Of a stretch of 64,000 nt of DNA, positions 44,988 through 59,624 are shown piece by piece. The DNA is taken from the NCBI GenBank assembly GCA_905234605.1, contig CAJOIE010000010.1:62001-126000 (forward strand), read 5' to 3'. The first letter of the stretch is position 1. Every line of letters begins with the position of its first letter. The notes under the pieces are model-generated. The model worked only from the letters and a program-made list of their open reading frames with translations, was not told the origin of the DNA and did not search any database. The DNA comes from an uncultured Bacteroidaceae bacterium (GTDB taxonomy: Bacteria > Bacteroidota > Bacteroidia > Bacteroidales > Bacteroidaceae). Made by a program: the position numbers and the translations under genes.

Positions 44988-45025
44988 AAAAGAGGCAACA
45001 ATCCGTGAGGATGATTGCCTCTTTT
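44988..45025 (+). terminator. Rho-independent terminator
   Basis: aaaagaggcaacaatccgtgaggatgattgcctctttt. Confidence 0.75.
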
Positions 45026-45089
45026 ATTGTTCTCTGACATTGGCTTAAAAAAACGACCCGCCACATGGCGGCCGTTACAGAATAACCAC

Positions 45090-45097
45090 TACCTTTG
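45090..45097 (+). promoter_or_regulatory. TAnnTTTG -7 box, candidate promoter of the cytoskeletal operon
   Basis: TACCTTTG; first clear box after the terminator. Confidence 0.45.
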
Positions 45098-45170
45098 AGG
45101 CGACTTCCCAATGCCCGCAAGGAAGGCGATGTCCCCTTGCATCATGGCCAGCATGCTGGCCTGACAAGTT

Positions 45171-45237
45171 AGGGCACTCCGCGCAATAGCAGAGCACCCC
45201 TCGCAATGACAGGGGCACCCCGCGCCGATGGCAGGGT
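45171..45237. repeat. Three imperfect ~21-bp tandem units (GGGCACYCCGCGCAATAGCAG)
   Basis: gggcactccgcgcaatagcag/agcacccctcgcaatgacag/gggcaccccgcgccgatggcag. Confidence 0.65.
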
Positions 45238-45637
45238 GGGGAGTCGCTACCGACATAGGAAGGCGTTACTTGACGCCTTGTGCTTGACGCTCGTGAATCT
45301 GGCAGTTCCCGAACATTTCGTCAGACAACAAGGCAACAATGACGCCCATGGGTATGTTATAGTCATGCCGCAGCCCGCGCCGTGCGGGCTGGTGGTGCTA
45401 TATACATACGGCGTGGGTATCGGCGTTGCTCGTTTCGACGAAAGAGGCAATGCCAGAGCCAACGAGCGTGAGACGGGCAGCAGGTCTGACTCTCACGCTT
45501 TTCTTTTCGGTAGCAGCCATCCATGGCAAGACGGCATCTGTGCCTGTCAGCCCAAGCCATGGCTGTCATCACATGTCACCTCGTCACAGGCCGCACGTGA
45601 GAGTCCGCCGGTCGCAAAGCATTTGTTTCTTGAAGCT

Positions 45638-46909
45638 ATGCGTGTACCATGTGGATTAGCAGCTATGCTCATGGGTGTGGCCATGCCGGTGTGCCTTTCG
45701 TGCGGCGGCAGGCCGTCGTTGTCTGATGCGGAAGCCGGGGATGGCGGCGGAGATGTGGGTGCAATTCCGGAGCAGAGTGCACCCGTTAGTGCACCCGTTG
45801 TGGATGTCTATTTTGAGAACTCGGGCAGCATGTATGGCTATGTCAATGGTGCCACGGAGCTGAAGGACATAGTCTACGACTACCTCACAAGCCTGGAGAC
45901 CAGTGGTGCCGTGTCCGCCATCAGACTGTCCTACATCAACTCTAAGGTGCTTCCTGCGGGAGGCGACATCGGTTCTTTCGTCAAGACGCTGACTCCTGCA
46001 TCGCTCAGGCGTAAGGGCGGCGACATGGGCACGTCGGACTTGGCCTCCATGCTTGGGCGCATCATTGCTGCATGCGGCGACACTGCTGTAGCGGTGTTCA
46101 TCTCCGACTGCATATTCTCGCCCGGCAAGGGTGTCGATGCTGCCGCCTATCTGGCTCGGCAGCAGATAAGCATCAGGCGCGCCTTTGCCGCCGGTGTGCG
46201 CACGCAGCCCCGTCTGTCTGCCGTTGGCTACCTGTGCTACTCCATGTTCGACGGCACGTACTACGATGCTGGCGACAGGCCTTCGGCTTTCAAGGGGCAG
46301 CGTCCGTTCTACATCTGGCTGTTCGGTGCGGAGTCGGCTTTGCGCCGTGTGGCCGGTGCCGTGCCGGCCGGTGGTTTCTTCGGCGATGGTGTCAGGGATA
46401 GTGTCGTCATCGCAGGCGGCGGCCGTGAGCTGTCTGCCAGGCAGTATGCCATCCATCCCGGTTCCGGCCACTTCGACCTGTCGCATGCTGATGCCCGCCA
46501 CACGCTTGAACATCTGGGCCGCGACCGTGGTGGCAAGTATGTCTTTGCCGTGGATGCCGACTTCTCGTCTGTCTTCGTGTCCGAGGCGTTCCTGGCTGAC
46601 ACTGCCAACTATCATACAGACAATGCCGCTTACCGTGTCGTCGGCGTGAAGGCATTGCAGGAGGCCTCTGCCATGTTCACGCATCGGGTTAGGCTTGAGG
46701 CCACGCATGTCGTGCCCGGACGCCTGACCGTCAGCCTGCGCTCATGCCTGCCGCCATGGGTCTGGCGTGTGAACGATGCGACAGGCGATGCTCTCACCGA
46801 CTCGACTGCGGCCATGACCTTCGGTATCGCCAGCATGGTGCGTGGCATTGCCGACGGCATCTGGCGTGACAGCGACAGGCAGGTGAGCTTCACGGTCAAT
46901 ATCAAGTAA
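45638..46909 (+). CDS. Lipoprotein with vWA-like domain (variant MIDAS)
   Basis: MRVPCGLAAMLMGVAMPVCLSCGG lipobox; VDVYFENSGSMYGYV (ExSxS), GTSDLASMLG, AVFISDCIFSP. Confidence 0.75.
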   Translation: MRVPCGLAAMLMGVAMPVCLSCGGRPSLSDAEAGDGGGDVGAIPEQSAPVSAPVVDVYFENSGSMYGYVNGATELKDIVYDYLTSLETSGAVSAIRLSYINSKVLPAGGDIGSFVKTLTPASLRRKGGDMGTSDLASMLGRIIAACGDTAVAVFISDCIFSPGKGVDAAAYLARQQISIRRAFAAGVRTQPRLSAVGYLCYSMFDGTYYDAGDRPSAFKGQRPFYIWLFGAESALRRVAGAVPAGGFFGDGVRDSVVIAGGGRELSARQYAIHPGSGHFDLSHADARHTLEHLGRDRGGKYVFAVDADFSSVFVSEAFLADTANYHTDNAAYRVVGVKALQEASAMFTHRVRLEATHVVPGRLTVSLRSCLPPWVWRVNDATGDALTDSTAAMTFGIASMVRGIADGIWRDSDRQVSFTVNIK

Positions 46910-46944
46910 CCATCGTCACACACATATATATAATCCGATAGTCT

Positions 46945-47418
46945 ATGAACTTAAGCGAGATTGCAGGCACCGTCTGCGACTTCATCAACCGCCTGGGGCT
47001 CTACTCCCAGCCTCTGAGCTTGTATCTGTGGGGCTACGACTGTTCCACGGGAGAGTACTCACTGCCCATTCTCTACAACCTGTATGGCTTCATCGCCTTA
47101 GTTGTGGCCTTGGTGCTTGCGGCAATCTACTACTATGCCTGGAAGCCTGTGCGCCGGCAGCGCATGTGGTGGTTCGTGCTGCTTGGGGCTAATGGTTTGG
47201 TGCAGTGGTGTGTAGCCTATTTCTGTCTTACGGCCCGCCTTGATGCCGGCCGCATTGGCGAGTGTCTGGTGTTCAATGACAGCGGCACGCAGGTCATCGA
47301 CCGTGCCGACATCGCCATGTTTGGAGTTGTCAACGCTGTAGTGGCCATGCTCCTGTTCTTCGTCCTGTCGTTGGTGTTTAAGTCGTTTAGCAGCACATGC
47401 AGGCACTATCCTTTCTGA
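46945..47418 (+). CDS. Small multi-TM membrane protein of the cytoskeletal operon
   Basis: LYLWGYDCSTGEYSLPILYNLYGFIALVVALVLAAIYYYAW; ~3-4 TM. Confidence 0.75.
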   Translation: MNLSEIAGTVCDFINRLGLYSQPLSLYLWGYDCSTGEYSLPILYNLYGFIALVVALVLAAIYYYAWKPVRRQRMWWFVLLGANGLVQWCVAYFCLTARLDAGRIGECLVFNDSGTQVIDRADIAMFGVVNAVVAMLLFFVLSLVFKSFSSTCRHYPF

Positions 47419-47456
47419 GATAACATCCTTCTACCTCACCATCTACAATATCCGAT

Positions 47457-48863
47457 ATGAGCAAACTCTATGTCTTCGGCATTGGCGGCACAGGAGCCCG
47501 AGTGCTGCGCTCGCTCACCCATCTGCTGGCCTGCGGCGTGGCGTGCCGCGACACAGTCGTGCCGGTGCTTATCGACCCCGATGTGAGCAATGGCGACCTG
47601 TCGCGAACCGTGACTCTGATGCAGCATTATGCCAGTGTGCGCGGCTCCCTCTCGTTTGGCAACGACACCTCAAGCCGCTTCTTTGCCACCGAGTTGATGG
47701 AAATAGGCCATTTCCGCCTGCCTGTTCAGGACACGCAGGATCTCGTGTTCAAGGACTTCATGGCTGTTGACCAGGGCATGTCGCGCCCCTCGCAGGCTCT
47801 GCTGCACATGCTCTTCTCGGAGCGCAACATGCAGGCCGACATGTCGGTGGGCTTCAAGGGCAATCCTAACATGGGCATCATAGTGCTCAACCAGTTTGCC
47901 ACCACGCCGGAGTTCATCGACTTGGCCAACATCTTCCAACAGGACGACCGCGTCTTCATCGTCAGCTCCATCTTCGGCGGCACGGGGGCCAGCGGTTTCC
48001 CCTTGCTGCTCAACACCTTGCGCGACAACCACACGCTGCCCAACTTTGGCCTGCTCAACGAGGCCGTGGTGGGAGCCGTCTCGGTGCTGCCCTATTTCAA
48101 GGTCAAGGCCACGGAGAGCAGCAGCATCGAGTCCGACGCGTTCATCGCCAAGACGCGCTCGGCACTGGCCTACTACGACAAGAACCTCCAGGGCAAGCTC
48201 CAGGCCATGTACTACATTGGCGACAATGCCACGGCCCACCGTTCCTACCCCAACATCGAGGGCGGGCGCGAGCAGCGCAACAATGCCCATCTCGTGGAGC
48301 TGCTGGCGGCACTGGCCGTGCTCGACTTTGCCAACCACGACTTCCAGCCTCACGGCAAGACCGTCTACAAGGAGTTCGGCATGGAGGTCGACAAAGAGCA
48401 GACCGTCATCTTCGGCAACTTCGCTGCCACCACGCGCAACATCCTGCGCCGTCCGCTCACTCAGGCCATGCTCATGGCCAACTATATGGACAACGTCGGT
48501 CTCGACCTGCGCCTGGCACAGCAGTGGAGCCGTGACAACGGCCTCGGTGCTACATTCTTCGCCGGCGACTTCTTCGGCCACCTACAGGCATGCCTCAAGG
48601 ACTATGTGGCCTGGCTGCATGAGATGGAGGACAACCAGCTCTCGTTTGCCCCATTTGAGCGCAACGCGCAGGATGCTTTCGCAATAGTGAGAGGCGTGAC
48701 TCCCGCGCGCAGCTTCTTAGGCAAGAAGAACTACCAGCTCTTCGACGCCACCCTCGACGACGTGAGCCGTAGCTTCAAGAAAAGGCCGAGCCCGGAGCGG
48801 GCCTTCATGGAGCTCTTCTCGGCCGCCACGGCCAAGCTCGTGGCACAGAAACTCAAGTACTGA
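47457..48863 (+). CDS. Tubulin/FtsZ-superfamily-like GTPase
   Basis: N-terminal FGIGGTGARVLRSLTHLL; tubulin-signature-like VSSIFGGTGASGFPLLLNTLRD. Confidence 0.82.
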   Translation: MSKLYVFGIGGTGARVLRSLTHLLACGVACRDTVVPVLIDPDVSNGDLSRTVTLMQHYASVRGSLSFGNDTSSRFFATELMEIGHFRLPVQDTQDLVFKDFMAVDQGMSRPSQALLHMLFSERNMQADMSVGFKGNPNMGIIVLNQFATTPEFIDLANIFQQDDRVFIVSSIFGGTGASGFPLLLNTLRDNHTLPNFGLLNEAVVGAVSVLPYFKVKATESSSIESDAFIAKTRSALAYYDKNLQGKLQAMYYIGDNATAHRSYPNIEGGREQRNNAHLVELLAALAVLDFANHDFQPHGKTVYKEFGMEVDKEQTVIFGNFAATTRNILRRPLTQAMLMANYMDNVGLDLRLAQQWSRDNGLGATFFAGDFFGHLQACLKDYVAWLHEMEDNQLSFAPFERNAQDAFAIVRGVTPARSFLGKKNYQLFDATLDDVSRSFKKRPSPERAFMELFSAATAKLVAQKLKY

Positions 48864-48884
48864 CCTTTACAGCAACACAGCATT

Positions 48885-51800
48885 ATGTCAAAAGTGTTTC
48901 GCATATACTCTTCCGGCAGCGACACGCTGCTTGACTGGCAAGGTAGCACCGAGAACCCCTACGGAGCCAAGGCCATAGGCGAGATTATAGACCCCGATGC
49001 CAAGGATTCCAAGCGTGAGATAACATCCATCCCGTCGCCCTTTGCACGCATCGACCTGGTGAAGAACGCATACGCCGAAGTCGTCAGGTCTGGCCGGCTG
49101 CGGGGCGACACCATCTTCCACAAGATTGTGTCCGACTCGCTCGACATCGCACAGATTTTCTTCCGCCTGCCCAAACTCAGGGGCAAGGTGGAAGTGATAG
49201 CCTGGCACCGCGAGCATGAGCTCAACCAGCTGCTTAGTGGCACGAGCGCGGCCCACCGGCGTGTGGGCGCGACGCTGAGCATGTTTCTCCGTCAGGATGC
49301 ATTGCCCGACAATGATAAGCCAGGCGTGTCGCGTGGCGATGATAAGGTGACGCCCTACAATTTCGAGCTCATGCAGGCCATCTACCTGCTGCGCTACTGT
49401 GGCAGCGCGCGGCGCACACAGATGGATATCATCGGGGCCACATCGCCTGCCACGCTCTTCTTCAGCACAGCCAACGACCTGAGCTACCTCTCGGCCGACC
49501 TCCAATTCGGCACCGACCGTGCCTTCGACAGTGAGTATGCCTCGCTCGGACAGCGCGAAGAGCAGTTCATACGCTTCTATTTCGCCTTCAGCAAGGCATA
49601 CCCCGATTTCTCCCGTCGCTTCAAGGAGGTGAACGAATATCTGAACCTCGTCTATCGCTACGACCTCACGCCGGAGCAGAAGGACATGGTCGATGCCCTC
49701 ACGCCAGACAGCGTGCGCGACTATCCCGAGCTCACGGCCAATCAAGACCGTGTGGAAATCAACGGCGTGGCCTATCGCAGCTGCGGCGTCAGCACAGGCG
49801 TGGTGAGCGACTTCGAGATACGCTCACAGGCTGCATGCGACGACGGCCGCCGCCCGCTGGTGTTGCCGGTGGAGTGCGGCACGCTCTACACCAGCCTCAC
49901 ATACGTCAGCGGCAAGTGGGAGCGCACCTACAAGGCACCGCAGACCGACGCGCGCCCTGTGGAGAAGCGCGACCTGCCCTTTGCCAACGAGGCATATCCC
50001 TATCTCACCATCAGCGACTTTCTTGAGGACAGCCTGGTCAGAGTGAAGCGCGAGGGGCGCATCGACGACAAGGCCTTCTACACCGCGGCCGCTGCCGACA
50101 GTGCCTACTGCTATCTCCTCCCGCTGCGGCCCTTGTTCTTCAGCTACTTCACACCAGAGCAGCTGCGGGCAGACCACATGCTCGACATCGAGGAGACAGT
50201 CACGGGACATGTGCGCGTGCGGCTGCGCATTCCCGTCAAGGGCGGCGTCAACATCGACTATGAGCGCAGCTACATCGACGGGCAGCCGTCCATCGAGGGC
50301 AATGGACGCCTGCTCACCTGCGACTTTGCCGTGGCACTGTTCACCAACATGGCCTTCACCAGCCAGCGGCAGGCTTACTATCGTGCCGGCATCGTGACCG
50401 AGTTCGAGCAGTGCGACGACTATTCGGCCACGTTCTGGCATGCCGGCAGGCAGGTGCCGGTGGCGGGCGAGGTGGTGCGCAACAAGGAGCACGATGCCTA
50501 CGTGAGCTGCCGCACCTACGTGCTTGAGCAGCAGTGCTTCGACCTTATGCGTATACGTTGCCGCGCCGACGGCCGCGATGCCGAGGGCGTGCTCGTGCCG
50601 CTGTTCAGGCATGGAGGCAGCAGCGGCGGCGACAGCAAGAGCATCGTCTTCGCCATCGACCTTGGCACCACCAACACGCATGTGGAATACCGGCTTGACG
50701 GAGGCACGTCGCAGCCCTTTGACATGGATGCCGACGACGCCATGCTGAAGCTCTGGGGCGACGTAGACCCCTTCAGGGCCAACACGTTGGCATACGACAT
50801 GCTCCCCGCTGTGATTGGCGGGCACACCCTATATCATTTCCCTATGCGCACAGCCCTCTGTGTGGGCTCCGCCACAAACTGGCACCGTGCCGTCTATGCC
50901 CTGGCCGATGCTAACCTGCCGTTCCCCTACGGGAAAAAGGTAGGTTATGCCTACGACCGTGTCCATACCAACCTCAAGTGGAGCTCCGACGGAGAGGCCG
51001 AACAGCGTGTGAGGGCATACATCGACTCGCTGTTCATGTTGCTGCGCATCAAGACCATGCAGATGGGTTGCCCGTTAGAGCAGACGCGCATAGTGTGGTT
51101 CTACCCCATAAGCATGATGCGCAACCGCTACGACACCTTCTCCCGAGCATGGGCGGAAGCCTACGCGAAGTACTTCGGCGGCGAGCCGGCCAATGTCCAG
51201 GCCATGACAGAGTCGGTGGCTCCCTACGAGCATTTCCGAGCTGACAACAGTGCCGTGAACAACATCGTGACCATCGACATCGGAGGCGGCACCACCGACA
51301 TCGTCGTGGCTGCCGGCGGACGGGTGACCGACATCACCTCGTTCCGCTTTGCTGCCGACGCCATCTTCGGCGACGCCTACACCACCGCCGGCACCACCCT
51401 CAACAGGCTCCTCTGCGCATACGAGAGCCCTTTCAGAAGCATACTCAGTGACAACGGCCTCAAGGACCTCACCGACATCATGGACGTGCTGGTCAAGGCC
51501 AAGTCGTCGGCCAACCTGGCATCGTTCTTCTTCTCACTGCGCGACAACCAGGACGTGCGCGACAAGCACGTTAGCAGGAATGTCGACTGGGGTGAGATGC
51601 TCCAGAGCGACGAGCGCTTCAAGCTCGTGTTCGTCATCTTCTACACGGCCATCGTCTACCATCTTGCCACACTCATGCTCTCACGCGGCCATCGCCTGCC
51701 GCGCCACATAGCCTTCTCGGGCAACGGTTCGAAGGTGATACGCGTGCTCTCGGCAAGCAACGCCACCCTGGAGGCCTTCACCAAACACATCTTCGAGGCT

Positions 51801-52289
51801 GTCTATGAGCGCCCCTACGATGCCGACGGCCTCACCATACTCCAGAACGCCGATTGCCCGAAGGAGGCTACGTGCAAGGGAGGTCTCGCGGCGAGCGAGG
51901 CCGAAGCCTTCGACAGCGTGCATGCTGCTCGCGCCGTGCTCCGTGGCGACGGCACGCACGAGTGGTTCACAACGGAGACATACGCGCAGGTCGACGATGC
52001 CATGAAGGAGCGGACGGCCGAGGAGGCACGCCGCTTCCTGGACTTCGTGATACGGCTGGGCTGCACTTTCTCACTGAAGAAGAACTTCGGCGTCAGCGAT
52101 GCCACTATCCGCATAGCGCAGAAGGAGTGCGCACGCGACCTGCTCACCTACGTGAACAAAGGGCTCGCCGAGAGGCTGCGTGAGGACGCACTGTCCGACA
52201 GTGTCGAAGAGACGCTCTTCTTCTACCCGCTGAGAGGCATGCTCTCCGCGCTCATCACTGCTATATACGACAACATCATCTGCAAGTAA
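48885..52289 (+). CDS. Large protein with C-terminal actin/Hsp70-fold ATPase domain
   Basis: phosphate-1 IVFAIDLGTTNTHVEY, phosphate-2 IVTIDIGGGTTDIVV, adenosine-like HIAFSGNGSKVIRV; ~590 aa N-terminal region of unknown function. Confidence 0.85.
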   Translation: MSKVFRIYSSGSDTLLDWQGSTENPYGAKAIGEIIDPDAKDSKREITSIPSPFARIDLVKNAYAEVVRSGRLRGDTIFHKIVSDSLDIAQIFFRLPKLRGKVEVIAWHREHELNQLLSGTSAAHRRVGATLSMFLRQDALPDNDKPGVSRGDDKVTPYNFELMQAIYLLRYCGSARRTQMDIIGATSPATLFFSTANDLSYLSADLQFGTDRAFDSEYASLGQREEQFIRFYFAFSKAYPDFSRRFKEVNEYLNLVYRYDLTPEQKDMVDALTPDSVRDYPELTANQDRVEINGVAYRSCGVSTGVVSDFEIRSQAACDDGRRPLVLPVECGTLYTSLTYVSGKWERTYKAPQTDARPVEKRDLPFANEAYPYLTISDFLEDSLVRVKREGRIDDKAFYTAAAADSAYCYLLPLRPLFFSYFTPEQLRADHMLDIEETVTGHVRVRLRIPVKGGVNIDYERSYIDGQPSIEGNGRLLTCDFAVALFTNMAFTSQRQAYYRAGIVTEFEQCDDYSATFWHAGRQVPVAGEVVRNKEHDAYVSCRTYVLEQQCFDLMRIRCRADGRDAEGVLVPLFRHGGSSGGDSKSIVFAIDLGTTNTHVEYRLDGGTSQPFDMDADDAMLKLWGDVDPFRANTLAYDMLPAVIGGHTLYHFPMRTALCVGSATNWHRAVYALADANLPFPYGKKVGYAYDRVHTNLKWSSDGEAEQRVRAYIDSLFMLLRIKTMQMGCPLEQTRIVWFYPISMMRNRYDTFSRAWAEAYAKYFGGEPANVQAMTESVAPYEHFRADNSAVNNIVTIDIGGGTTDIVVAAGGRVTDITSFRFAADAIFGDAYTTAGTTLNRLLCAYESPFRSILSDNGLKDLTDIMDVLVKAKSSANLASFFFSLRDNQDVRDKHVSRNVDWGEMLQSDERFKLVFVIFYTAIVYHLATLMLSRGHRLPRHIAFSGNGSKVIRVLSASNATLEAFTKHIFEAVYERPYDADGLTILQNADCPKEATCKGGLAASEAEAFDSVHAARAVLRGDGTHEWFTTETYAQVDDAMKERTAEEARRFLDFVIRLGCTFSLKKNFGVSDATIRIAQKECARDLLTYVNKGLAERLREDALSDSVEETLFFYPLRGMLSALITAIYDNIICK

Positions 52290-52300
52290 CATCAGTGCAC

Positions 52301-52942
52301 ATGACAGAGAACAACAACATCTATACACCCTGGCTGCTGCTCGCGGCATCGTGTATTGCAATCCTGATACTGGCCCTGTGGGTCTGCAAGCTGCTCAAGG
52401 AGAAGGATGAACTGCTCAAGGAGAGCAGGGAGCCAGACAGACAGCAGAGCCGACACGTCGGCAAGAAGCAGCCGGCCAATGGCATGCCAAAGTCATCAGA
52501 CAAGCGGAAGTCCTCCAAAAAGAGCCGTCAGGGTCAGCCAGCTTCAGAGACACCATCCCAAGAGCAAGCGGTGAGCCCCCAGCCGCACGCCGGTCAGGCA
52601 CTGCCGCAGCCAGCGGAGCCATTGCAGCCCGTGGAGCAGCCTACAGAGAGAGAGTATGCCTTTCTCCGCTGTGCCACAGACGGGCGTTTCGCTGTTCCCG
52701 CCGCCGAGGCCGACGGCAAGACCTTCTTCCGCGTATGGGACGAGGATGGGCAGAAACGTTTTGAGTTTCATGGCAATGAGCGCAAGGCTCTGGCAAACCC
52801 CAATGCCGTGTTCGACGGCGTGTGTGAGCTGCACGGACGGCGTGAGGGAGCAACGGCCATTGAGAACGTGACGCCAGGCGTGCTCACCAGCGACTACGCC
52901 GTGCAGACACCGGCTGTGCTGCGTCTGCACCCGATTATGTGA
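52301..52942 (+). CDS. Single-TM protein with K/Q/P-rich linker and small C-terminal domain
   Basis: WLLLAASCIAILILALWVCKLL; charged/proline linker; C-terminal FLRCATDGRFAVPAAEADGKTFFRVWDEDGQKRFEFHG. Confidence 0.75.
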   Translation: MTENNNIYTPWLLLAASCIAILILALWVCKLLKEKDELLKESREPDRQQSRHVGKKQPANGMPKSSDKRKSSKKSRQGQPASETPSQEQAVSPQPHAGQALPQPAEPLQPVEQPTEREYAFLRCATDGRFAVPAAEADGKTFFRVWDEDGQKRFEFHGNERKALANPNAVFDGVCELHGRREGATAIENVTPGVLTSDYAVQTPAVLRLHPIM

Positions 52943-52965
52943 AACAAAGCAATAAGCATATTATA

Positions 52966-54468
52966 ATGTTTGAGATTATTGAGATTATAGTTACTGCCGG
53001 ATGCATTGCCCTGGAGCTAATCAGCTTTCTCCGGACAATGCGCCTGATACACAGCTACGGGCATATCTTCCCCCAATCGACCGACAGCATCACGCTGACA
53101 GCGGAGCAGGGACGCATCAGCATAGAGGCCGTCAGTCCGTCGCCTACACTCAAGGCGATACTGCTCACGCTCAACCGTTATCTGCACAGCAATGCCAATC
53201 AGGTGAACGACTACCACCTCATGCGCGACGTGGTCGAGCGCAACCGCTCCACGCGAGAGGTTGAGATAGTCACCCTGCTGCCATTCCCGCAGTACATCGG
53301 TCTGGCTGGCACCATGATTGGCATCATCATCGGCGTGGCGACATTCGTCTTTGGCGGCGGCCTCGAGGCACTGGTCACCACGGCGGCTGGCCACAGCGAT
53401 GTCCGCGGCGGCATACGCATCCTGCTGGGAGGAGTGGCGATAGCGGTGGCAACGAGTGCCTGCGGGTTGGTGTTCACGGCGTTGAACAGCTGGTTATTCA
53501 AAAGAGCGCGCACGCAGACGGAGCAGAGGGAGAATGACTTCCTGAGCTGGATACAGGCCGAGCTCTTGCCCAACATCGCCACAGGCCTCAGCTCGGCACT
53601 CAGCCGCATGACCGACAACCTGAACCGCTTCAATGCCGCCTTCTCCGTCAATGCCGACAAGCTCGCCAGCGTGTTGGCCAATGTGCGCTCATCCTACCGC
53701 GACCAGGCCGAGGTACTCCGTCTGTTGCAGAGCACGGATGTCATCCGTGTGGTGACGGCCAACGCCACCATCTACGACAAGCTCAAGAACTGCACCGAGG
53801 AGATTGGCCTCCTCGCCGAGGGGCTGTCGAGCTCACGCCAGTATCTCGCCACGGTGCGCGAGGTGACGGCAAAGCTCGACGATGCCGACCGGCGGGCCCG
53901 CACATGGGAGCGCATGGGGCGTTTCTTTGAGCAGGAGGCCAAGCAGTTAGAGCGGCGCAAGGGTGCCATCACCGAGGCCGTGGGCGAGGTGGACAAGCGT
54001 CTCACGGAGGCTCTCACGGCACTGCGCGAGAGAGCCGACGCGCAGATAACAAGCACCGCTGAAGTCATGCAGGAACACAGGCGCAGCCTCGATGCCTCGC
54101 TCGCACAGCAGGAGCAGGTGTTCACCGAGAGGCTCGGGCAGATGTCGGAGACGATAGGCAAGCGCACACAGACCCTGGAGCGCGTCTTCGCCGAGCAGGA
54201 GAAGCTCTCCGCGGCGGCAGCCCAGGAGCTGCACCGCTACGCGCGACAGCTCGACAACCTGAGCGACATACGTCAGGGCATACGTGAGTTGCAGGCCGCG
54301 GTGGCACAGCAGAGCCAACGGCCGCTGACCGACGCGCCCATCACCGTGACCAGCCGAGTGGCATGGCCGCTGCAAGCTGCCGTATATGTCATTGCCCTCT
54401 TCTGCCTGATAGTTCTGGGCGGTGAGGCCGTGGCATTGTATCACTTCATAGTGTCGGTACTGTCATGA
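52966..54468 (+). CDS. MotA/TolQ/ExbB-like (ZorA-like) membrane protein with long coiled-coil
   Basis: LPFPQYIGLAGTMIGIIIGVATFVF...GGIRILLGGVAIAVATSACGLVFTALNSWLF; ~250 aa helical region. Confidence 0.85.
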   Translation: MFEIIEIIVTAGCIALELISFLRTMRLIHSYGHIFPQSTDSITLTAEQGRISIEAVSPSPTLKAILLTLNRYLHSNANQVNDYHLMRDVVERNRSTREVEIVTLLPFPQYIGLAGTMIGIIIGVATFVFGGGLEALVTTAAGHSDVRGGIRILLGGVAIAVATSACGLVFTALNSWLFKRARTQTEQRENDFLSWIQAELLPNIATGLSSALSRMTDNLNRFNAAFSVNADKLASVLANVRSSYRDQAEVLRLLQSTDVIRVVTANATIYDKLKNCTEEIGLLAEGLSSSRQYLATVREVTAKLDDADRRARTWERMGRFFEQEAKQLERRKGAITEAVGEVDKRLTEALTALRERADAQITSTAEVMQEHRRSLDASLAQQEQVFTERLGQMSETIGKRTQTLERVFAEQEKLSAAAAQELHRYARQLDNLSDIRQGIRELQAAVAQQSQRPLTDAPITVTSRVAWPLQAAVYVIALFCLIVLGGEAVALYHFIVSVLS

Positions 54469-55154
54469 GCCAGCAGGGCAACAGCGAGTCGCATTTCTGG
54501 CCGAGCTACTCCGACCTGATGACCAGCATGTTCTTCATCATGCTCGTCATGTTCGTGCTCACGATGGTGTCGCTGCGCTTCTCGTTGCTCGAGGCCGAGA
54601 AACTGCGCAGGGCCTCGGAGGAGCAGTTGGAGAAGATACGTGAGATACAAGAAGCCGTCCGACAGCTGCCGCAGCAGTATTTCGAGGAGGATACGGCCAA
54701 CAAGCGGTGGATGATACGCAGCGAGTATGCCCCGCATTTCAACATCATGAGCTCCGACATTACCCTGTGCAACGACACCGTGAGCCTGCTCCGTGTGGGG
54801 TCGTCGCTGATGGATGTGGTGGACCGTCTCAATGCCATGAAGGCCGACCCCAAATACAGCAACATGCACATCAGCTACCTCGTGGTCATTGAGGGGATGG
54901 CATCTAACGACAGCTACGTGGACAACGATGCCCTGAGCTACCGGCGTGCCCTGTCGCTCTACTACCTGTGGCGGCGCAACGGCATCTCGTTTGAGCAGTC
55001 GCAGTGCGAGGTGCAGGTGGCGGGCAGCGGCACGCGCGGCATAGGACGCTACAACGCCGGAGGCCGCCACCCGGAGCAGGAGGTGCTCAACCAGCGCATC
55101 ATCATACAGATAGTGCCTAAGATAGGCAACATACCTAAGATAGGCGACATATAG
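54465..55154 (+). CDS. MotB/OmpA-like (ZorB-like) protein
   Basis: WPSYSDLMTSMFFIMLVMFVLTMV single TM with Asp; C-terminal OmpA-like VVIEGMASND...LSYRRALSLYYLWRRNG; 4-nt overlap with upstream gene. Confidence 0.85.
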   Translation: MSQQGNSESHFWPSYSDLMTSMFFIMLVMFVLTMVSLRFSLLEAEKLRRASEEQLEKIREIQEAVRQLPQQYFEEDTANKRWMIRSEYAPHFNIMSSDITLCNDTVSLLRVGSSLMDVVDRLNAMKADPKYSNMHISYLVVIEGMASNDSYVDNDALSYRRALSLYYLWRRNGISFEQSQCEVQVAGSGTRGIGRYNAGGRHPEQEVLNQRIIIQIVPKIGNIPKIGDI

Positions 55155-55170
55155 GCCTCCCGCCGCCCAA

Positions 55171-55953
55171 TCACCACTCTGTCAGGCTGGCCGAGGCCTC
55201 CACGCGACGTTCCAGGGTGTCGGGCAGGGTGGGGAAGAAGTCCATGCCCGTGATGCGCTCCACCTCGTCGACGGTTCTGACATAGAGATCCTTGCGGATG
55301 TTGTCGCCAGTGTTGAGGCATACGAAGCCTATGGCCTTGGCCTTGCCTGTGAGGCAGAGCACGACCTTGAAGAATGCCTCAGGCACGGGTATGCGGTGCG
55401 CACCGATGCTGTCGTGCTCCTGCCGCAGAAAGACGGGGCCGCCCACGATGTAGATGTCGCCATAGCGGCGTGCCCAGCGGCGGCAGTCGAGCTCGATGGC
55501 GTTCCACAAGCCGTTGTTGAGGCGTGGGTGCTGCGGGCATATATTGGTGAGCATGAAGGTTTCTGCCATGGCCGTGGAGTCCCACTTGTTGTCGCCGGCA
55601 GGGCATATATGGCCGCGCGACCAGCCGCTGCCCGCATAGTCAGCATTGGAAGCACGAGGCGCGGGCACGCTGGTGTCCTCGCTGAAGCGGACCGAGCGTG
55701 ACACCTCGCCCGTGGTGTGCTCTCCCGTCAGGTGCCACGCCACCCAGTTGGGCTGCATGCGGGTCGGGTTGTAGCTCACGGTGTAGCTCTTGCGGATGAG
55801 CATCACCTCGTCCTGGCCCGCAAGCGGGGCGGGCTGCTCCAGGGGAGCGGTGCGCGGCGTGAGGTGGCGCGAGCGCGGGCTTGTGCAGCAGGTGCATACG
55901 AGGAGCATGGCAGAGAGGCAGAGTGCCCCGACAGTGGGCTTGAGGGTGACCAT
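55171..55953 (-). CDS. DNA/RNA non-specific endonuclease (NucA family), predicted lipoprotein
   Basis: LLVCTC lipobox; YAGSGWSRGHICPAGDNKWDSTAMAETFMLTNICPQHPRLNNGLW. Confidence 0.92.
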   Translation of the reverse strand: MVTLKPTVGALCLSAMLLVCTCCTSPRSRHLTPRTAPLEQPAPLAGQDEVMLIRKSYTVSYNPTRMQPNWVAWHLTGEHTTGEVSRSVRFSEDTSVPAPRASNADYAGSGWSRGHICPAGDNKWDSTAMAETFMLTNICPQHPRLNNGLWNAIELDCRRWARRYGDIYIVGGPVFLRQEHDSIGAHRIPVPEAFFKVVLCLTGKAKAIGFVCLNTGDNIRKDLYVRTVDEVERITGMDFFPTLPDTLERRVEASASLTEW

Positions 55954-56414
55954 AGTTGCGTGCAGTGGCTGTTTGTCGGGTCAAAGATAGCCATAAATGC
56001 CTCAGTAGCCCTGCCTCGTGCCGTCAAAAAGCAGGTGCAGCACCCTCTCTTCGCGATGCTCGCCAAAAGGGGCACTGTGGCATGCGTGCAGACTGCTGTC
56101 CCACAATGCTTTGCGCAAGCTGCCTGCCACCATGCAGGGTGGTTGGCACGCACACTGCCGCAGCTCATCTCTCTCCCTGCCGCCTCAAGGCCGGAGGCCT
56201 GGCATGTCAGCACTGCAGGGGCGGGCCGGCGGCCCGGTGATGTAGAATAATACACTCTTCCCTCATGCCCGCAGAGAATGACACATAGCCGACATGCGGA
56301 TTTTCATGCTTCCTGTCATGGGAAGCCTCATCGTTTTGCCTATGCTAATCCGGTTCCTTGTGTGTTGCAGATAGTTTTTTCGGGCGAGCAAGTGGCTCGG
56401 TAGCCAAAAACAGC

Positions 56415-56422
56415 TACCTTTG
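56415..56422 (+). promoter_or_regulatory. TAnnTTTG -7 box
   Basis: TACCTTTGC. Confidence 0.45.
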
Positions 56423-56609
56423 CAGCCAGATTAAATAGTCAGGGCAAGACCAATCAGAGAGCCCCCGTACTGAAGGGCGAGGACGCTTGATGTACTTCGA
56501 CATGATGGAGATTGCCCGATGCCCCCCCACGAGAAGATGCCCCGCAGAGAGTTGCACATAGCCAACAGAGTAATGCCCAAATCCCTTGGCCATTACGATA
56601 TTTTTGTTA

Positions 56610-56634
56610 CTCTCTCTCTCTCTCTCTCTCTCTC
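56610..56634. repeat. (CT)12 dinucleotide microsatellite
   Basis: Uninterrupted ctctct... run of 25 nt. Confidence 0.95.
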
Positions 56635-56829
56635 CTTCTAATCTTCGGTTCACCTTAATATAGCACGACGCGCGCACATGCGTCGTCATATACGGCTTTT
56701 CTTGTATTCACACAAGAGAAGTCGGCTTGTTTTTTGTCCCCGTCGGACTACGGCGGCGGGGACAGCGAGAAGGAATAACAAATACCTAAACACTCATTTA
56801 TAAATCATTCAAACAAAGTATTTAAGAAC

Positions 56830-56970
56830 ATGAAAAGAAAAGACTATCTGAAACCGACGATGGAAGTCGTCAAGTGTGAATCCACCGTAGAACTGCTCGC
56901 GGCAAGCAGCAAGACGAGAGTGAGTGCGACAATGAATAGCACGTGGGAGGAGGAGGACATAGACGAATGA
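56830..56970 (+). CDS. 46-aa small protein upstream of the fimbrillin-like gene
   Basis: MKRKDYLKPTMEVVKCESTVELLAASSKTRVSATMNSTWEEEDIDE*; below the supplied ORF-track cutoff. Confidence 0.65.
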   Translation: MKRKDYLKPTMEVVKCESTVELLAASSKTRVSATMNSTWEEEDIDE

Positions 56971-57016
56971 CCCCGCAGTCAACCTGCGTATTGACAACAA
57001 AATACAGGAGAAGACA

Positions 57017-58450
57017 ATGAAAACAAAGAATATCTTCAAGACGTTGGCCGCTGCCATGCTGATGCCAGTCATGCTGCTGACCACATCGTGCAGCAGCGAG
57101 GACGATTTACTCAACACCGAGAGCACCGCAAAGAAAGGCTACACCATTCCCGTCACCGTCAACGTGACCCGTCAGGGCGATGCCACCGCCACTCGCGCCA
57201 CGTACAACAGCGATAGCAAGAAACTGGAGTTCAGCGAGGGTGACAAGCTATTTGTGAGCGGGTGTTATAATGATGGTGAATACAATTATGCCGGTACGCT
57301 GGATTATGACGCTGTGTCTGGAACGTTCAGCGGCACCATTACTACCGCAACTAAGTGGACAGGCACAGCCGAAGAGCTTCTCTCAGCAGATGGTGGTGCT
57401 AATGCCACACTGTTGCCTGCGGGTTACGGAGTCTATGGGTATTTATCTATTGATGAAGAAGGTACTTCTGAAGCTTTTCTGGACGTAAATCCTGGCAAAG
57501 CTTTTGCTACCTCTAAGTCTGCAGCCGTGGAGCAGTTCAGCTGGGAGTATTGTGATTCATATTCTGATGGCTTTACCCTGATGCCTTCCAATTCCGTCCT
57601 CAACTTCACCATCAACGGCTTGGAGGCCAGCTCTGATGTCGATGTGGCATTCTCATTTCCCAATTATCCTGACCCTATTGTCATTTCAGGGAATGTAAAA
57701 ACCGACGGTTCGGGCACCGCTATATTTGCTATCGGCATCATATATGCCAATGACTTAAAAGACTGCACCCTGACGGTGGACGGCAATGACATCACTCTCG
57801 TCAGCGAAAGTAAGGTGGTCGAGGCCGGCATGATTTACAACATCACGAGGAGTGTGGCTCCGGCTAATCCCTTTGCCGGTGTCCGGGCCGAGGACATTGG
57901 CAAGGTGATTGGTGCCGATGGCAAAATCTACGTCGACGCTGCAGCTGCTGCCGCTGCCAACACCACCGCCGTGGCTAAGATTTGCTACGTGGGCAGCGAC
58001 AACGGCGAGGATGCACCATACAACCACGGTCTGGCTCTCGCCTTGAGCGATGCGAATGGCGGTGGCACATGCAAGTGGAAGAATGCGGCCAGCGCAGATG
58101 CAAGCCATATCAGTCAGAATAACCCCAGCAGTTTCGCCAAAGAGAGCGGCCTGCAGTACAACGAGACTCACAACAATGACACTTATCCTGCTTTCAAGGC
58201 TGCGATAGCCAATAATGGTACAGCAGTGCCCACAGGCTGCTCCGACTGGTTCCTGGCCAGTGGCTATCAGTTGACGAAGATGGCTGGTGCTGTAGGTGGC
58301 TATGGTAATTTGGGCTTGAATTCGTCGTCAAAGTACTGGTCCAGTACGGCGTACATGAAAGTCTTCGCGTGGTACTACGACTTCAGCAATGGCTGGAAAA
58401 ACAATCTTAAGCAAGATAAATACCTTGTCCGTGCCTGCATCGCATTCTGA
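57017..58450 (+). CDS. Fimbrillin-family (Mfa-like) lipoprotein with C-terminal DUF1566/C-lectin-like domain
   Basis: MLLTTSCSSEDD lipobox; YTIPVTVNVTRQGDATATRATY; C-terminal YWSSTAYMKVFAWYYDFSNGW...YLVRACIAF. Confidence 0.8.
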   Translation: MKTKNIFKTLAAAMLMPVMLLTTSCSSEDDLLNTESTAKKGYTIPVTVNVTRQGDATATRATYNSDSKKLEFSEGDKLFVSGCYNDGEYNYAGTLDYDAVSGTFSGTITTATKWTGTAEELLSADGGANATLLPAGYGVYGYLSIDEEGTSEAFLDVNPGKAFATSKSAAVEQFSWEYCDSYSDGFTLMPSNSVLNFTINGLEASSDVDVAFSFPNYPDPIVISGNVKTDGSGTAIFAIGIIYANDLKDCTLTVDGNDITLVSESKVVEAGMIYNITRSVAPANPFAGVRAEDIGKVIGADGKIYVDAAAAAAANTTAVAKICYVGSDNGEDAPYNHGLALALSDANGGGTCKWKNAASADASHISQNNPSSFAKESGLQYNETHNNDTYPAFKAAIANNGTAVPTGCSDWFLASGYQLTKMAGAVGGYGNLGLNSSSKYWSSTAYMKVFAWYYDFSNGWKNNLKQDKYLVRACIAF

Positions 58451-58710
58451 TATATAGCAATGTGTTCTCTCCCCGCACTGCGCGGACAGGTCCGTAACGC
58501 TGCGGTGTGGGCGAAATCCCCTCATGGCGGTCTTGCGGCCCGCCGCGAGTGTCAAGAGAATTGCTCACAGGGGACAGCCCCCTGTGAGGCCATGAACCCA
58601 AGGGAGGGCGGCTCAGCGGTGCACCGTGGCATCGGGGGTCGCTCTCCTTCTTCTCTCCCTGCGCGGCGGTGGGCGGTGCCGCTCGCCTGGCGGCCGGCCT
58701 GCCCGCGCTG

Positions 58711-58737
58711 CATGCGCCAGGCTCTGTCTGGCGCATG
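58711..58737. terminator. Strong hairpin upstream of pyrK
   Basis: catgcgccag-gctctgt-ctggcgcatg, perfect 10-bp stem. Confidence 0.5.
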
Positions 58738-58794
58738 TTTGCGGGCATTCTGGTTTTTATGCCGCCGCCGGCAGCTTTGTTTGCGTGGAGGTGC

Positions 58795-58802
58795 TTATCT
58801 TT
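58795..58802 (+). promoter_or_regulatory. TAnnTTTG -7 box of pyrK
   Basis: TATCTTTG immediately upstream of ATG 58809. Confidence 0.5.
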
Positions 58803-58808
58803 GCGGCA

Positions 58809-59624
58809 ATGAAGAAGTATCAACGTGAACTTGTCGTGGCGGCAGCCGAGGTGCTGCGTGCCGACTATACGCTGCTGCGGCTCAAGGCGCCTGCCGGCCC
58901 GTTGCCCGAGATGTGGCCGGGGCAGTTCGTCCAGGTGCGGGCAGATGCCTCGCCCTCTACATTGCTGCGCCGCCCCATCAGCATCAATTTCGTGGACACG
59001 GCGGCAGGCGAGCTGTGGCTCCTTGTGCATGCCGTGGGCTCCGGCACCCGTGCCTTGTGCGCTTTGCGCGAGGGTGAGCGGGTGGATGTCGTGTTGCCTC
59101 TCGGCACGGGCTTTCCGCTGTGCAGCGGCGGGGAGCGTGTGTTGCTCGTGGGTGGCGGCGTGGGCTCTGCGCCCTTGTTGTATCTGGGCTCACGGCTGGC
59201 TGCCCGTGGCTGCGACGTGACGTTCCTGCTTGGCGGGCGCCGGGCTGCCGATGTGTTGCAGGCCGACTGCTGCAAGCGTTATGGGCGCGTGTGCATTACC
59301 ACCGAGGACGGCAGTGCCGGCGAGCGCGGCGTCGTCACCGACCATTCGCTGTGGACTGAGGCCTCGTTTGCCACGGTCTACACCTGCGGGCCTCGCCCCA
59401 TGATGCGTGCCGTGGCCGCCCGTGCCGCGGCCATGGGGGCGCGCTGCTATGTCTCCCTGGAGAACACGATGGCCTGCGGTCTCGGTGCCTGTCTGTGCTG
59501 TGTGCAGCAGACCACGGAGGGGCATGTCTGTGTGTGCACCGACGGTCCGGTGTTCGAGGCCGACGCGGAGTTCTCACTGCGCCCCCTGCCGTCTGCCACC
59601 GACTATAGCGGCACTAATCTCTGA
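58809..59624 (+). CDS. pyrK: Dihydroorotate dehydrogenase B electron transfer subunit
   Basis: LRRPISINFVD, LLVGGGVGSAPLLYL, TCGPRPMMRAV, MACGLGACLCCVQQT. Confidence 0.93.
   Translation: MKKYQRELVVAAAEVLRADYTLLRLKAPAGPLPEMWPGQFVQVRADASPSTLLRRPISINFVDTAAGELWLLVHAVGSGTRALCALREGERVDVVLPLGTGFPLCSGGERVLLVGGGVGSAPLLYLGSRLAARGCDVTFLLGGRRAADVLQADCCKRYGRVCITTEDGSAGERGVVTDHSLWTEASFATVYTCGPRPMMRAVAARAAAMGARCYVSLENTMACGLGACLCCVQQTTEGHVCVCTDGPVFEADAEFSLRPLPSATDYSGTNL

What the first reader, a model, noticed from the sequence alone, without database searches (positions are those of the whole stretch)
48885..52289. 1134-aa protein: unknown ~590-aa N-terminal region fused to an actin/Hsp70-fold ATPase
DLGTTNTHVEY, IDIGGGTTDIVV and FSGNGSKVIRV occur in the right order and spacing for an actin-superfamily ATPase, only in the C-terminal half. 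The N-terminal half has no motif I recognise. It could be a scaffold linking the two filament systems. Virulence factor SrfB-like proteins are one family to compare against.
Basis: partly seen in the sequence, partly recalled or inferred. Interest (0 to 1): 0.78.

Follow-up and report, generated by a model that had tools for sequence, protein, structure and literature searches.

The report
Actin-fold hub of motor-driven envelope machine
The 1134-residue protein really is a bacterial actin relative carrying a large extra front part, and it is the central piece of a seven-gene, patchily inherited machine (a tubulin relative, an actin relative and a Zorya-like membrane motor) whose neighbouring exported proteases and nucleases are swapped between species, which makes it a plausible but untested anti-phage or conflict system.

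Summary
In detail: window 48885-52289 (+) is one intact 1134-aa gene, residues 585-1013 have the actin/MreB/Hsp70 fold (AF2 pLDDT 88; MreB Z 12.4), and the nucleotide-loop residues are invariant across the family. The N-terminal ~545 residues are equally conserved, confidently folded, and have no convincing PDB match. It is not SrfB by Pfam's cut-off.

The gene is the hub of a conserved operon: vWA-like lipoprotein, 3-TM protein, tubulin-like, actin-like, TM/linker protein, ZorA/MotA-like, ZorB/MotB-like. The order recurs in nearly all of about 80 loci across Bacteroidota. Core genes co-diverge (r 0.66-0.93). Directly downstream lies an exchangeable cassette of mostly exported hydrolases: trypsin-like or retropepsin-like protease (nearly mutually exclusive) and/or Endonuclease_NS or SNase. 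The window copy sits on a ~13.9-kb insertion missing from congeners; one congener has Cas9-Cas1-Cas2 at that site.

Best reading: an envelope-spanning, ion-motor-coupled NTPase machine (FtsZ/FtsA-like pair on a Zorya-like motor) controlling exported hydrolases, most likely a conflict/anti-phage system. Defence is inferred, not shown; defence-island enrichment was inconclusive. FtsZ-like/vWA/OmpA operons were reported in 2010; the actin partner, motor and hydrolase cassette appear undescribed.

The parts
45638..46909 (+). vWA-like exported lipoprotein (E-N-S-G-S MIDAS-type motif, lipobox Cys); the listed ORF start at 45206 is probably 144 codons too early
   Evidence: Alignment A5: E204, S208, M209, G211, D301 and the lipobox Cys invariant in 17 homologues; homologues lack the upstream 144 aa. 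No Pfam vWA hit, so 'vWA-like' rests on the motif only
46945..47418 (+). small membrane protein, mostly 3 TM segments, C-terminal Pro-Phe tail
   Evidence: Family in 82 loci; 3 TM in 58 of 82; PF within the last 6 residues in 60 of 82
47457..48863 (+). tubulin/FtsZ-like GTPase-fold protein (GIGGTG and FGGTGASG loops)
   Evidence: Weak Tubulin_2 PF13809 and Tubulin PF00091 hits; G10 G11 G13 and G174 G175 T176 G177 invariant in 39 homologues; best PDB profile hit 3zid Tubulin/FtsZ, E 0.022
48885..52289 (+). the finding: 1134-aa actin-fold protein with large N-terminal region
49002..50636 (+). N-terminal region, residues 40-584: alpha/beta and helical part (40-430) then beta-sandwich part (433-572)
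   Evidence: Predicted alone: pLDDT 91.6, pTM 0.85; only weak Ig-like matches, Foldseek E 1.4e-4, VIA best Z 5.4; invariant T47, I49-F53, S187-P188 etc.
50637..51923 (+). actin/MreB/Hsp70-fold ATPase domain, residues 585-1013
   Evidence: VIA Z 12.4 to MreB 2wus_A, 3.6 A over 287 residues
51924..52286 (+). C-terminal helical extension, residues 1014-1134, with conserved FFYP motif at 1112-1115
   Evidence: AF2 secondary structure; F1112 and P1115 invariant in A3
52301..52942 (+). TM plus low-complexity linker protein with a small conserved C-terminal domain ('C6'); fast-evolving
   Evidence: Family in 83 loci; 1-2 TM; no Pfam hit; part of the region is unalignable as DNA between loci whose core genes are 74-79% identical
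52939..54468 (+). MotA/ZorA-like ion-channel subunit with long coiled-coil-like C-terminal tail
   Evidence: PADLOC ZorA2 E 1.8e-6; in homologues MotA_ExbB PF01618 E 0.002; weak profile hit to solved ZorA 8vvn_C; alignment A7
54465..55154 (+). MotB/ZorB-like subunit: one TM with invariant Asp17 and OmpA-like peptidoglycan-binding domain
   Evidence: PADLOC ZorB1 E 4.8e-12; profile hit to solved ZorB 8vvn_B E 1.1e-12 over nearly the whole length, well above MotB 6ykp_F E 0.0015; D17, N154, L157, S158, R161, A162 invariant
55171..55953 (-). Endonuclease_NS-type DNA/RNA nuclease with N-terminal export signal; candidate output enzyme (convergent here, same-strand downstream in most relatives that have it)
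   Evidence: PF01223 E 5e-54; WSRGHICPAGD motif; 11 of 17 family members lie same-strand within 4 genes downstream of the operon
44996..58916 (.). insertion carrying the system, between an HTH regulator gene and pyrK-pyrD
   Evidence: HolA-PyrD spacing 16.3 kb here, 2-2.7 kb in most congeners; empty sites and junction alignments

Best explanation
The protein is the actin-fold, ATP-binding hub of an envelope-spanning machine. A ZorA/ZorB-like ion-driven motor is anchored to peptidoglycan by its B subunit and reaches into the cytoplasm with the A subunit's coiled-coil tail. In the cytoplasm the actin-like protein and the tubulin-like protein act as a nucleotide-controlled pair, as FtsA and FtsZ do, with the large N-terminal region as the docking surface. 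Two small membrane proteins and a vWA-like lipoprotein carry the signal to the periplasm or outer-membrane face, where exported hydrolases (a trypsin-like or retropepsin-like protease and/or a nuclease) are the output. The most likely purpose is biological conflict: sensing an envelope breach by a phage or mobile element and destroying the incoming DNA or protein at the envelope. Shown here: the fold, nucleotide-loop conservation, operon conservation and co-divergence, the motor-type residues, linkage and exchange of the hydrolase cassette, and the accessory island status. Inferred: ATPase activity, the partnership with the tubulin-like protein, signal direction, and the defence role.
For: Actin/MreB fold with invariant nucleotide loops. 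Same gene order in nearly all of about 80 Bacteroidota loci; profiles find ACT in 89, TUB 88, vWA 82, TM 82, MotA 77 and MotB 69 of the loci. Core genes co-diverge: ACT-TUB r 0.93, ACT-MotA 0.89, ACT-MotB 0.74, 0 of 500 permutations as high. The B subunit resembles ZorB more than any other solved protein (8vvn_B E 1.1e-12, 8qyd_F E 4.6e-9) and keeps the channel Asp and peptidoglycan-binding residues that Zorya defence needs (PMC11890865). Trypsin_2, retropepsin and SNase families lie almost only within 4 genes downstream on the same strand (28, 23 and 7 members), with catalytic motifs kept. The two protease types are nearly mutually exclusive (1 of 65 loci has both; Fisher p 8e-5) and change type at least 7 times on the tree; between L082 and L079/L112, DNA homology ends at the end of the MotB gene and the cassette differs. 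Accessory: absent from 36 congeners, on an insertion; one congener has Cas9-Cas1-Cas2 at the same site (L125), and L099 has Cas9-Cas1-Cas2 one small gene downstream. About 3-4% of Bacteroidales and of Bacteroidota genomes.
Against: No phage-protection data exist. PADLOC hits among flanking genes (131 proteins) against a control set from the same kind of contigs (88 proteins) gave no clear enrichment. Known Zorya effectors act in the cytoplasm, whereas these hydrolases look exported. 13 of 65 complete loci have none of the four hydrolase families. The window copy has no protease, and its nuclease is on the opposite strand. No direct evidence for ATPase activity, filaments or protein-protein contact. 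The tubulin-like protein is below Pfam's cut-offs and a profile comparison with local FtsZ matched only the G-box.
Confidence: 0.5

Rival explanations
1. It is an envelope-remodelling or transport machine with a housekeeping-like role: the tubulin-like/actin-like pair organises the membrane and the motor delivers force through the periplasm, with the exported hydrolases acting on the cell's own envelope or on nutrients.
For: Makarova and Koonin 2010 (PMC2875224) proposed membrane remodelling for FtsZ-like-1/vWA/OmpA operons, including a Bacteroides caccae member; motor proteins of this superfamily also drive TonB, Tol-Pal and type 9 secretion.
Against: Absent from all 36 congeners and about 96% of the order; single copy on an insertion; repeated exchange of hydrolase type; nucleases are odd tools for remodelling one's own envelope.
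Confidence: 0.28
2. It serves antagonism of neighbouring cells: the motor-driven machine displays or releases lipoprotein proteases and nucleases that damage competing bacteria.
For: Exported protease/nuclease cassettes that swap by type; many carriers live in dense gut, rumen or oral communities (record titles).
Against: No immunity gene was seen to pair with the cassette; no secretion-system structural genes (tube, spike, sheath) were seen in the operon; lipoproteins would tend to stay on the producer.
Confidence: 0.1
3. The actin-like and tubulin-like proteins are two filament systems and the 1134-aa protein is a cytoskeletal scaffold linking them; the hydrolases are unrelated neighbours.
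For: Tightest co-divergence in the operon is actin-like with tubulin-like (r 0.93); fold neighbours MreB, BeeR and MamK form filaments.
Against: Hydrolases are positioned too consistently to be chance; fold alone does not predict filaments (Hsp70, GppA and EutA share it); N- and C-terminal additions could block actin-type polymerisation; the tubulin-like protein lacks identifiable C-terminal FtsZ/tubulin domains.
Confidence: 0.15

Closest known systems
FtsZ-like 1 (FtsZl1, Tubulin_2 PF13809) / vWA / OmpA operons (Makarova and Koonin 2010, PMC2875224)
   Same: Tubulin-like G-box protein next to a vWA-type exported protein and an OmpA-domain protein; a Bacteroides member was in their alignment; patchy distribution alongside ordinary FtsZ.
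   Different: That paper names no actin-fold partner, MotA/ZorA subunit, protease or nuclease. Here there is no kinase or P-loop GTPase, and the tubulin-like protein is short (468 aa against about 1000 aa with coiled coil) and below the Pfam cut-off.
Zorya anti-phage systems (ZorA-ZorB motor plus ZorCD, ZorE or ZorFG)
   Same: A/B motor pair; the B subunit is closest to ZorB among solved proteins; channel Asp and peptidoglycan-binding residues kept; long cytoplasmic A-subunit tail; accessory distribution; associated nucleases.
   Different: No ZorC, D, E, F or G recognised; adds tubulin-like, actin-like and vWA-like proteins and two membrane proteins; associated hydrolases look exported; below NCBIfam Zorya cut-offs.
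FtsA-FtsZ
   Same: Adjacent actin-fold and tubulin-fold genes that co-diverge; FtsA (PF14450) is the Pfam family most family members touch, 12 of 17, all weakly.
   Different: Accessory, additional to the genome's own FtsZ (G000:C9); large N-terminal region; no amphipathic tail shown.
SrfB, virulence factor family PF07520 (srfABC operons)
   Same: Large protein with an unknown N-terminal part and an actin/Hsp70 phosphate-2 motif.
   Different: 13.2 bits against a 27.1 cut-off over 51 residues; no SrfB found in 148 Bacteroidota genomes; different operon.
MreB / BeeR / DnaK
   Same: Fold of residues 585-1013 and nucleotide loops.
   Different: Single-domain or chaperone proteins; sequence identity about 10-19% over the fold; no 545-aa N-terminal region.

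Membership tests
Actin/Hsp70/MreB ATPase superfamily | Two-lobed actin fold | tested here: met
   VIA Z 12.4, 3.6 A over 287 residues to MreB; Foldseek E 7e-9
Actin/Hsp70/MreB ATPase superfamily | Phosphate-1, phosphate-2 and adenosine loops in order | tested here: met
   D592, G594, D798, G800, G801, D805, G946 invariant in 61 and in 17 diverse members
Actin/Hsp70/MreB ATPase superfamily | ATP binding or hydrolysis, polymerisation | not testable with these tools
   needs biochemistry
SrfB (PF07520) | Pfam score over the curated cut-off | tested here: not met
   13.2 against 27.1 bits; 3 of 17 members match at E<=0.1, best E 0.021
SrfB (PF07520) | srfABC operon context | tested here: inconclusive
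   Neighbours are tubulin-like, motor and lipoprotein genes; no SrfA or SrfC named by Pfam in the window operon, but their profiles were not searched one by one
FtsZl1 / Tubulin_2 (partner gene) | Pfam Tubulin_2 cut-off | tested here: not met
   19.6 bits (window), 24.3 (L104), cut-off 27
FtsZl1 / Tubulin_2 (partner gene) | GGGTG-type GTP loop | tested here: met
   FGGTGASG: F173, G174, G175, T176, G177, A178, G180 invariant in 39 members
FtsZl1 / Tubulin_2 (partner gene) | Extended coiled coil plus alpha-helical C-terminal domain (about 1000 aa protein) | tested here: not met
   468 aa in the window; family mostly about 430-530 aa
FtsZl1 / Tubulin_2 (partner gene) | Operon with vWA and OmpA-family proteins | tested here: met
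   vWA-like and OmpA-domain MotB-like genes in most loci
Zorya | ZorA-ZorB motor pair with membrane Asp and peptidoglycan-binding domain | tested here: met
   Invariant Asp17 and OmpA-like residues; ZorB profile and structure-sequence hits; ZorA similarity weaker
Zorya | ZorC/D, ZorE or ZorF/G effector genes | tested here: not met
   None found by PADLOC or NCBIfam in the operon
Zorya | NCBIfam curated ZorA/ZorB cut-offs | tested here: not met
   ZorB1 29.1 against 400 bits; ZorA 12.3 against 100 bits
Zorya | 5:2 stoichiometry, ion-driven rotation, anti-phage activity | not testable with these tools
   needs cryo-EM and phage assays
vWA domain proteins (partner gene) | DxSxS MIDAS motif in a vWA fold | tested here: inconclusive
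   Motif is ENSGS with a later conserved SD; no Pfam or PDB profile hit; fold not predicted

The most novel reading that the evidence does not exclude
A new class of bacterial immune system in which a Zorya-type membrane motor is read out by a tubulin-like/actin-like nucleotide-switch pair and controls exchangeable exported proteases and nucleases, so that phage DNA or capsid-delivered proteins are attacked at the envelope during entry; the 545-aa N-terminal region of the actin-like protein would be a new cytoskeletal adaptor domain.
Probability: 0.38. Interest if true: 0.9.

Novelty: new variant of a known kind. Interest (0 to 1): 0.72.

Why it matters
Actin-like and tubulin-like proteins are known together mainly from cell division. 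Here such a pair is wired, gene by gene, to a Zorya-like ion motor and to swappable exported hydrolases, in a single-copy module with at least 568 related genome stretches across Bacteroidota, including gut commensals. No core protein of the window copy passes a Pfam cut-off, so annotation pipelines do not see the system. If it is immune, it would show defence acting at the envelope and would suggest why some motor-based systems need NTPase switches. If it is not, it gives the 2010 FtsZ-like/vWA/OmpA 'membrane remodelling' proposal a concrete, testable machine with a motor and defined output enzymes.

Tried and rejected
SrfB membership: rejected on Pfam scores; PF07520 rang in none of 148 Bacteroidota genomes nor in the 14 control genomes, so no SrfB sequence was available for a direct profile comparison. 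Single-sequence scans of viral and genome contigs found nothing; the family alignment found at least 568 stretches. Defence-island enrichment: PADLOC hits in flanks (73 families over 131 proteins, including type I restriction, PDC-S01, RtcR) against control (11 families over 88 proteins); families overlap and few proteins carry them, so inconclusive. GH25 lysozymes (x5) were first counted as part of the cassette but are not positioned with the operon (1 of 6 in the downstream slot), so dropped. hhalign of the tubulin-like family against local FtsZ: only the G-box aligned, not significant. Folds for the N-terminal region: best matches are immunoglobulin-like beta-sandwiches (Foldseek E 1.4e-4; VIA Z 5.4, below the level to trust), reported only as a weak resemblance of residues 433-572; the absence of a match for residues 40-430 does not prove a new fold. 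vWA profile: no PDB hit. The hydrophobic stretch at 914-933 of the actin-like protein is a helix inside the predicted fold, so a membrane anchor there was not claimed. Literature: no paper found on this operon; the library is open-access only, without bioRxiv as a collection.
Full report
1. The observation. The ORF at 48885-52289 (+) encodes 1134 aa without interruption and occurs once in the genome. The three motifs lie at residues 592, 797 and 944. In 61 homologues the loop residues D592, G594, N597, D798, G800, G801, D805, S945 and G946 do not vary; in a 17-member set reaching down to 15% identity D592, G594, D798, G800, G801, D805 and G946 still do not. An AlphaFold2 model from 61 sequences has pLDDT 88.1 and pTM 0.76. 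Foldseek against the PDB puts MreB and BeeR first (E 7e-9), then DnaK, actin and ParM. VIA-align gives Z 12.4, 3.6 A over 287 residues to MreB for model residues 585-1010.

2. The N-terminal region. Residues 40-583 predicted alone give pLDDT 91.6, pTM 0.85, so this is a folded region, not a linker. It is as conserved as the whole protein (mean column identity 36% in both alignments), with an invariant T-x-I-P-S-P-F block at 47-53. No Pfam, NCBIfam or PDB profile match was found. Foldseek finds only immunoglobulin-like beta-sandwiches for about residues 433-572 (E 1.4e-4; VIA Z at most 5.4), too weak to name a family. Residues 1014-1134 form a further helical extension.

3. Context. The gene is the fourth of seven same-strand genes (about 45638-55154). 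Profiles built from each window protein find the actin-like family in 89 loci, the tubulin-like in 88, the vWA-like lipoprotein in 82, the small membrane protein in 82, the MotA-like in 77 and the MotB-like in 69, nearly always in the same order; some loci end at contig edges. A scan of GTDB genomes found at least 568 stretches encoding relatives of the actin-like protein. Among 65 complete loci the proteins' distance matrices correlate strongly (actin-like/tubulin-like 0.93, actin-like/MotA 0.89, actin-like/MotB 0.74, lowest pair 0.66; no permutation of 500 reached any value). This is one inherited module. No core protein of the window copy passes a Pfam cut-off, and the homologues tested do not either.

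4. What the other core genes are. The B subunit starts with a W-x-S-Y/F-x-D transmembrane segment with invariant Asp17 and has an OmpA-type peptidoglycan-binding domain. Its profile hits solved ZorB (8vvn_B E 1.1e-12; 8qyd_F E 4.6e-9) far better than MotB (6ykp_F E 0.0015), and PADLOC ZorB1 at E 4.8e-12. The A subunit resembles ZorA/MotA/ExbB weakly and has a long coiled-coil-like tail. In Zorya, the ZorB Asp, peptidoglycan binding and the ZorA tail are each needed for defence (PMC11890865). The tubulin-like protein has conserved GIGGTG and FGGTGASG loops and weak Tubulin_2/Tubulin matches. The vWA-like lipoprotein has a conserved E-N-S-G-S-M MIDAS-like segment (E, second S and M invariant) and an invariant lipobox Cys; its fold was not tested. 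The window ORF for it is probably over-extended; the likely start is near 45638.

5. The exchangeable cassette. Directly downstream of the MotB-like gene lie short, mostly lipoprotein-like hydrolases: Trypsin_2, retropepsin (gag-asp protease), Endonuclease_NS, SNase (Pfam). By position, 28 trypsin-like, 23 retropepsin-like and 7 SNase genes sit within four genes downstream on the same strand, with almost none elsewhere in the flanks; Endonuclease_NS has 11 there and 6 elsewhere. Catalytic motifs are kept: GxSG in 29 of 29 trypsin-like, DTGA/S in 25 of 25 retropepsin-like, DGDT in 7 of 7 SNase, RGH in 13 of 17 Endonuclease_NS, several of the rest being fragments. A simple pattern finds lipobox-like signals in 21 of 29, 14 of 25, 10 of 17 and 6 of 7 (trypsin-like, retropepsin-like, Endonuclease_NS, SNase), probably an undercount because ORF starts were taken mechanically. 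The two proteases are nearly mutually exclusive (1 of 65 loci with both, Fisher p 8e-5) and change type at least seven times on the actin-like tree. In the pair L082 and L079/L112, DNA homology of 74-79% stops at the end of the MotB gene and the cassette differs, trypsin-like against retropepsin plus endonuclease. This looks like exchange of output enzymes on a fixed machine. The window copy has only the Endonuclease_NS gene, convergent at 55171-55953.

6. Mobility. None of 36 congeners has the gene. HolA and PyrD are 16.3 kb apart here but about 2-2.7 kb apart in most congeners with both on one contig; sequence comparison places the insertion between about 44996 and 58916, between an HTH gene and pyrK. 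Congener G013 carries Cas9-Cas1-Cas2 at the same site, and G016 and G032 carry other inserts there (Cas9 of G013 named from its sequence start and its Cas1/Cas2-like neighbours, not by a profile). Each of 17 carrier genomes has one copy. About 4% of Bacteroidales and 3% of Bacteroidota genomes carry the family.

7. How it most likely works. Shown: fold, loop conservation, module integrity, motor-type residues, linked and swapped hydrolases, island status. Inferred: the actin-like and tubulin-like proteins form a nucleotide-controlled cytoplasmic pair (FtsA/FtsZ logic), docked by the N-terminal region to the motor tail and membrane partners; motor engagement of peptidoglycan on envelope damage changes the pair; the signal passes through the small membrane proteins and the vWA-like lipoprotein to exported proteases and nucleases. 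A conserved Pro-Phe tail on the 3-TM protein (60 of 82) is a candidate docking peptide. I put 0.5 on this overall reading and 0.38 on its strongest form, a new immune system.

8. Rivals and limits. Makarova and Koonin (PMC2875224) described FtsZ-like/vWA/OmpA operons and proposed membrane remodelling; that remains a live rival (0.28), weakened by accessory distribution and cassette exchange. The test for defence-island enrichment was inconclusive. There are no functional data. The tubulin-like and vWA-like assignments rest on motifs and sub-threshold matches.

9. Novelty. Parts are related to known kinds (FtsZl1 operons; Zorya motors). The actin-fold partner with its 545-aa N-terminal region, the join to a Zorya-like motor, and the exchangeable exported hydrolase cassette were not found in the literature searched. 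I rate it a new variant of a known kind, with a real chance of being a new class.

Noticed in passing
L125 2429-7838 (congener G013, between pyrK and the HTH gene): Cas9-Cas1-Cas2-like genes occupy the same chromosomal site that carries the actin/tubulin/motor operon in the window genome; other congeners (G016, G032) have different inserts there, so the site looks like an insertion hotspot.
   Followed up: partly
L121 8210-17257: A viral-collection contig has the operon up to the C6 gene, followed on the opposite strand by phage tail, baseplate and DNA methyltransferase genes where MotA/MotB would be; a prophage seems to abut or interrupt the operon.
   Followed up: partly
L038 7046-15951 and L039 6617-10045: Very distant (15-16% identity) 1138-1142-aa relatives of the actin-like protein; in L038 one is next to a tubulin-like gene and two histidine kinases, with no motor genes seen. 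Possibly a second, motor-less type.
   Followed up: no
window 46945-47418 and homologues: The 3-TM protein ends in Pro-Phe in most homologues (49 of 82 exactly at the end, 60 of 82 within the last 6 residues), like a docking peptide.
   Followed up: no
window 52295-52942 and the 3' end of 52939-54468: In homologues, part of the C6 linker region and of the C-terminal tail of the MotA-like gene does not align as DNA between loci whose other core genes are 74-79% identical: fast evolution or exchange inside the operon.
   Followed up: no
window 45206-46909: The listed ORF start of the vWA-like lipoprotein is probably about 144 codons too early; homologues and the lipobox point to a start near 45638.
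   Followed up: yes
window 57017-58450: 477-aa putative lipoprotein inside the insertion; its C-terminal part matches phrog_4245 of unknown function (E 2e-6) and no Pfam family.
   Followed up: no
L099 16694-22009: Cas9 (Pfam RuvC_III, HNH_4), Cas1-like and Cas2-like genes follow the operon one small gene downstream in Flavobacterium akiainvivens.
   Followed up: partly
L089 17063-17380 and relatives: DUF6804 small membrane proteins recur next to the cassette (8 of 13 within four genes downstream on the same strand).
   Followed up: no
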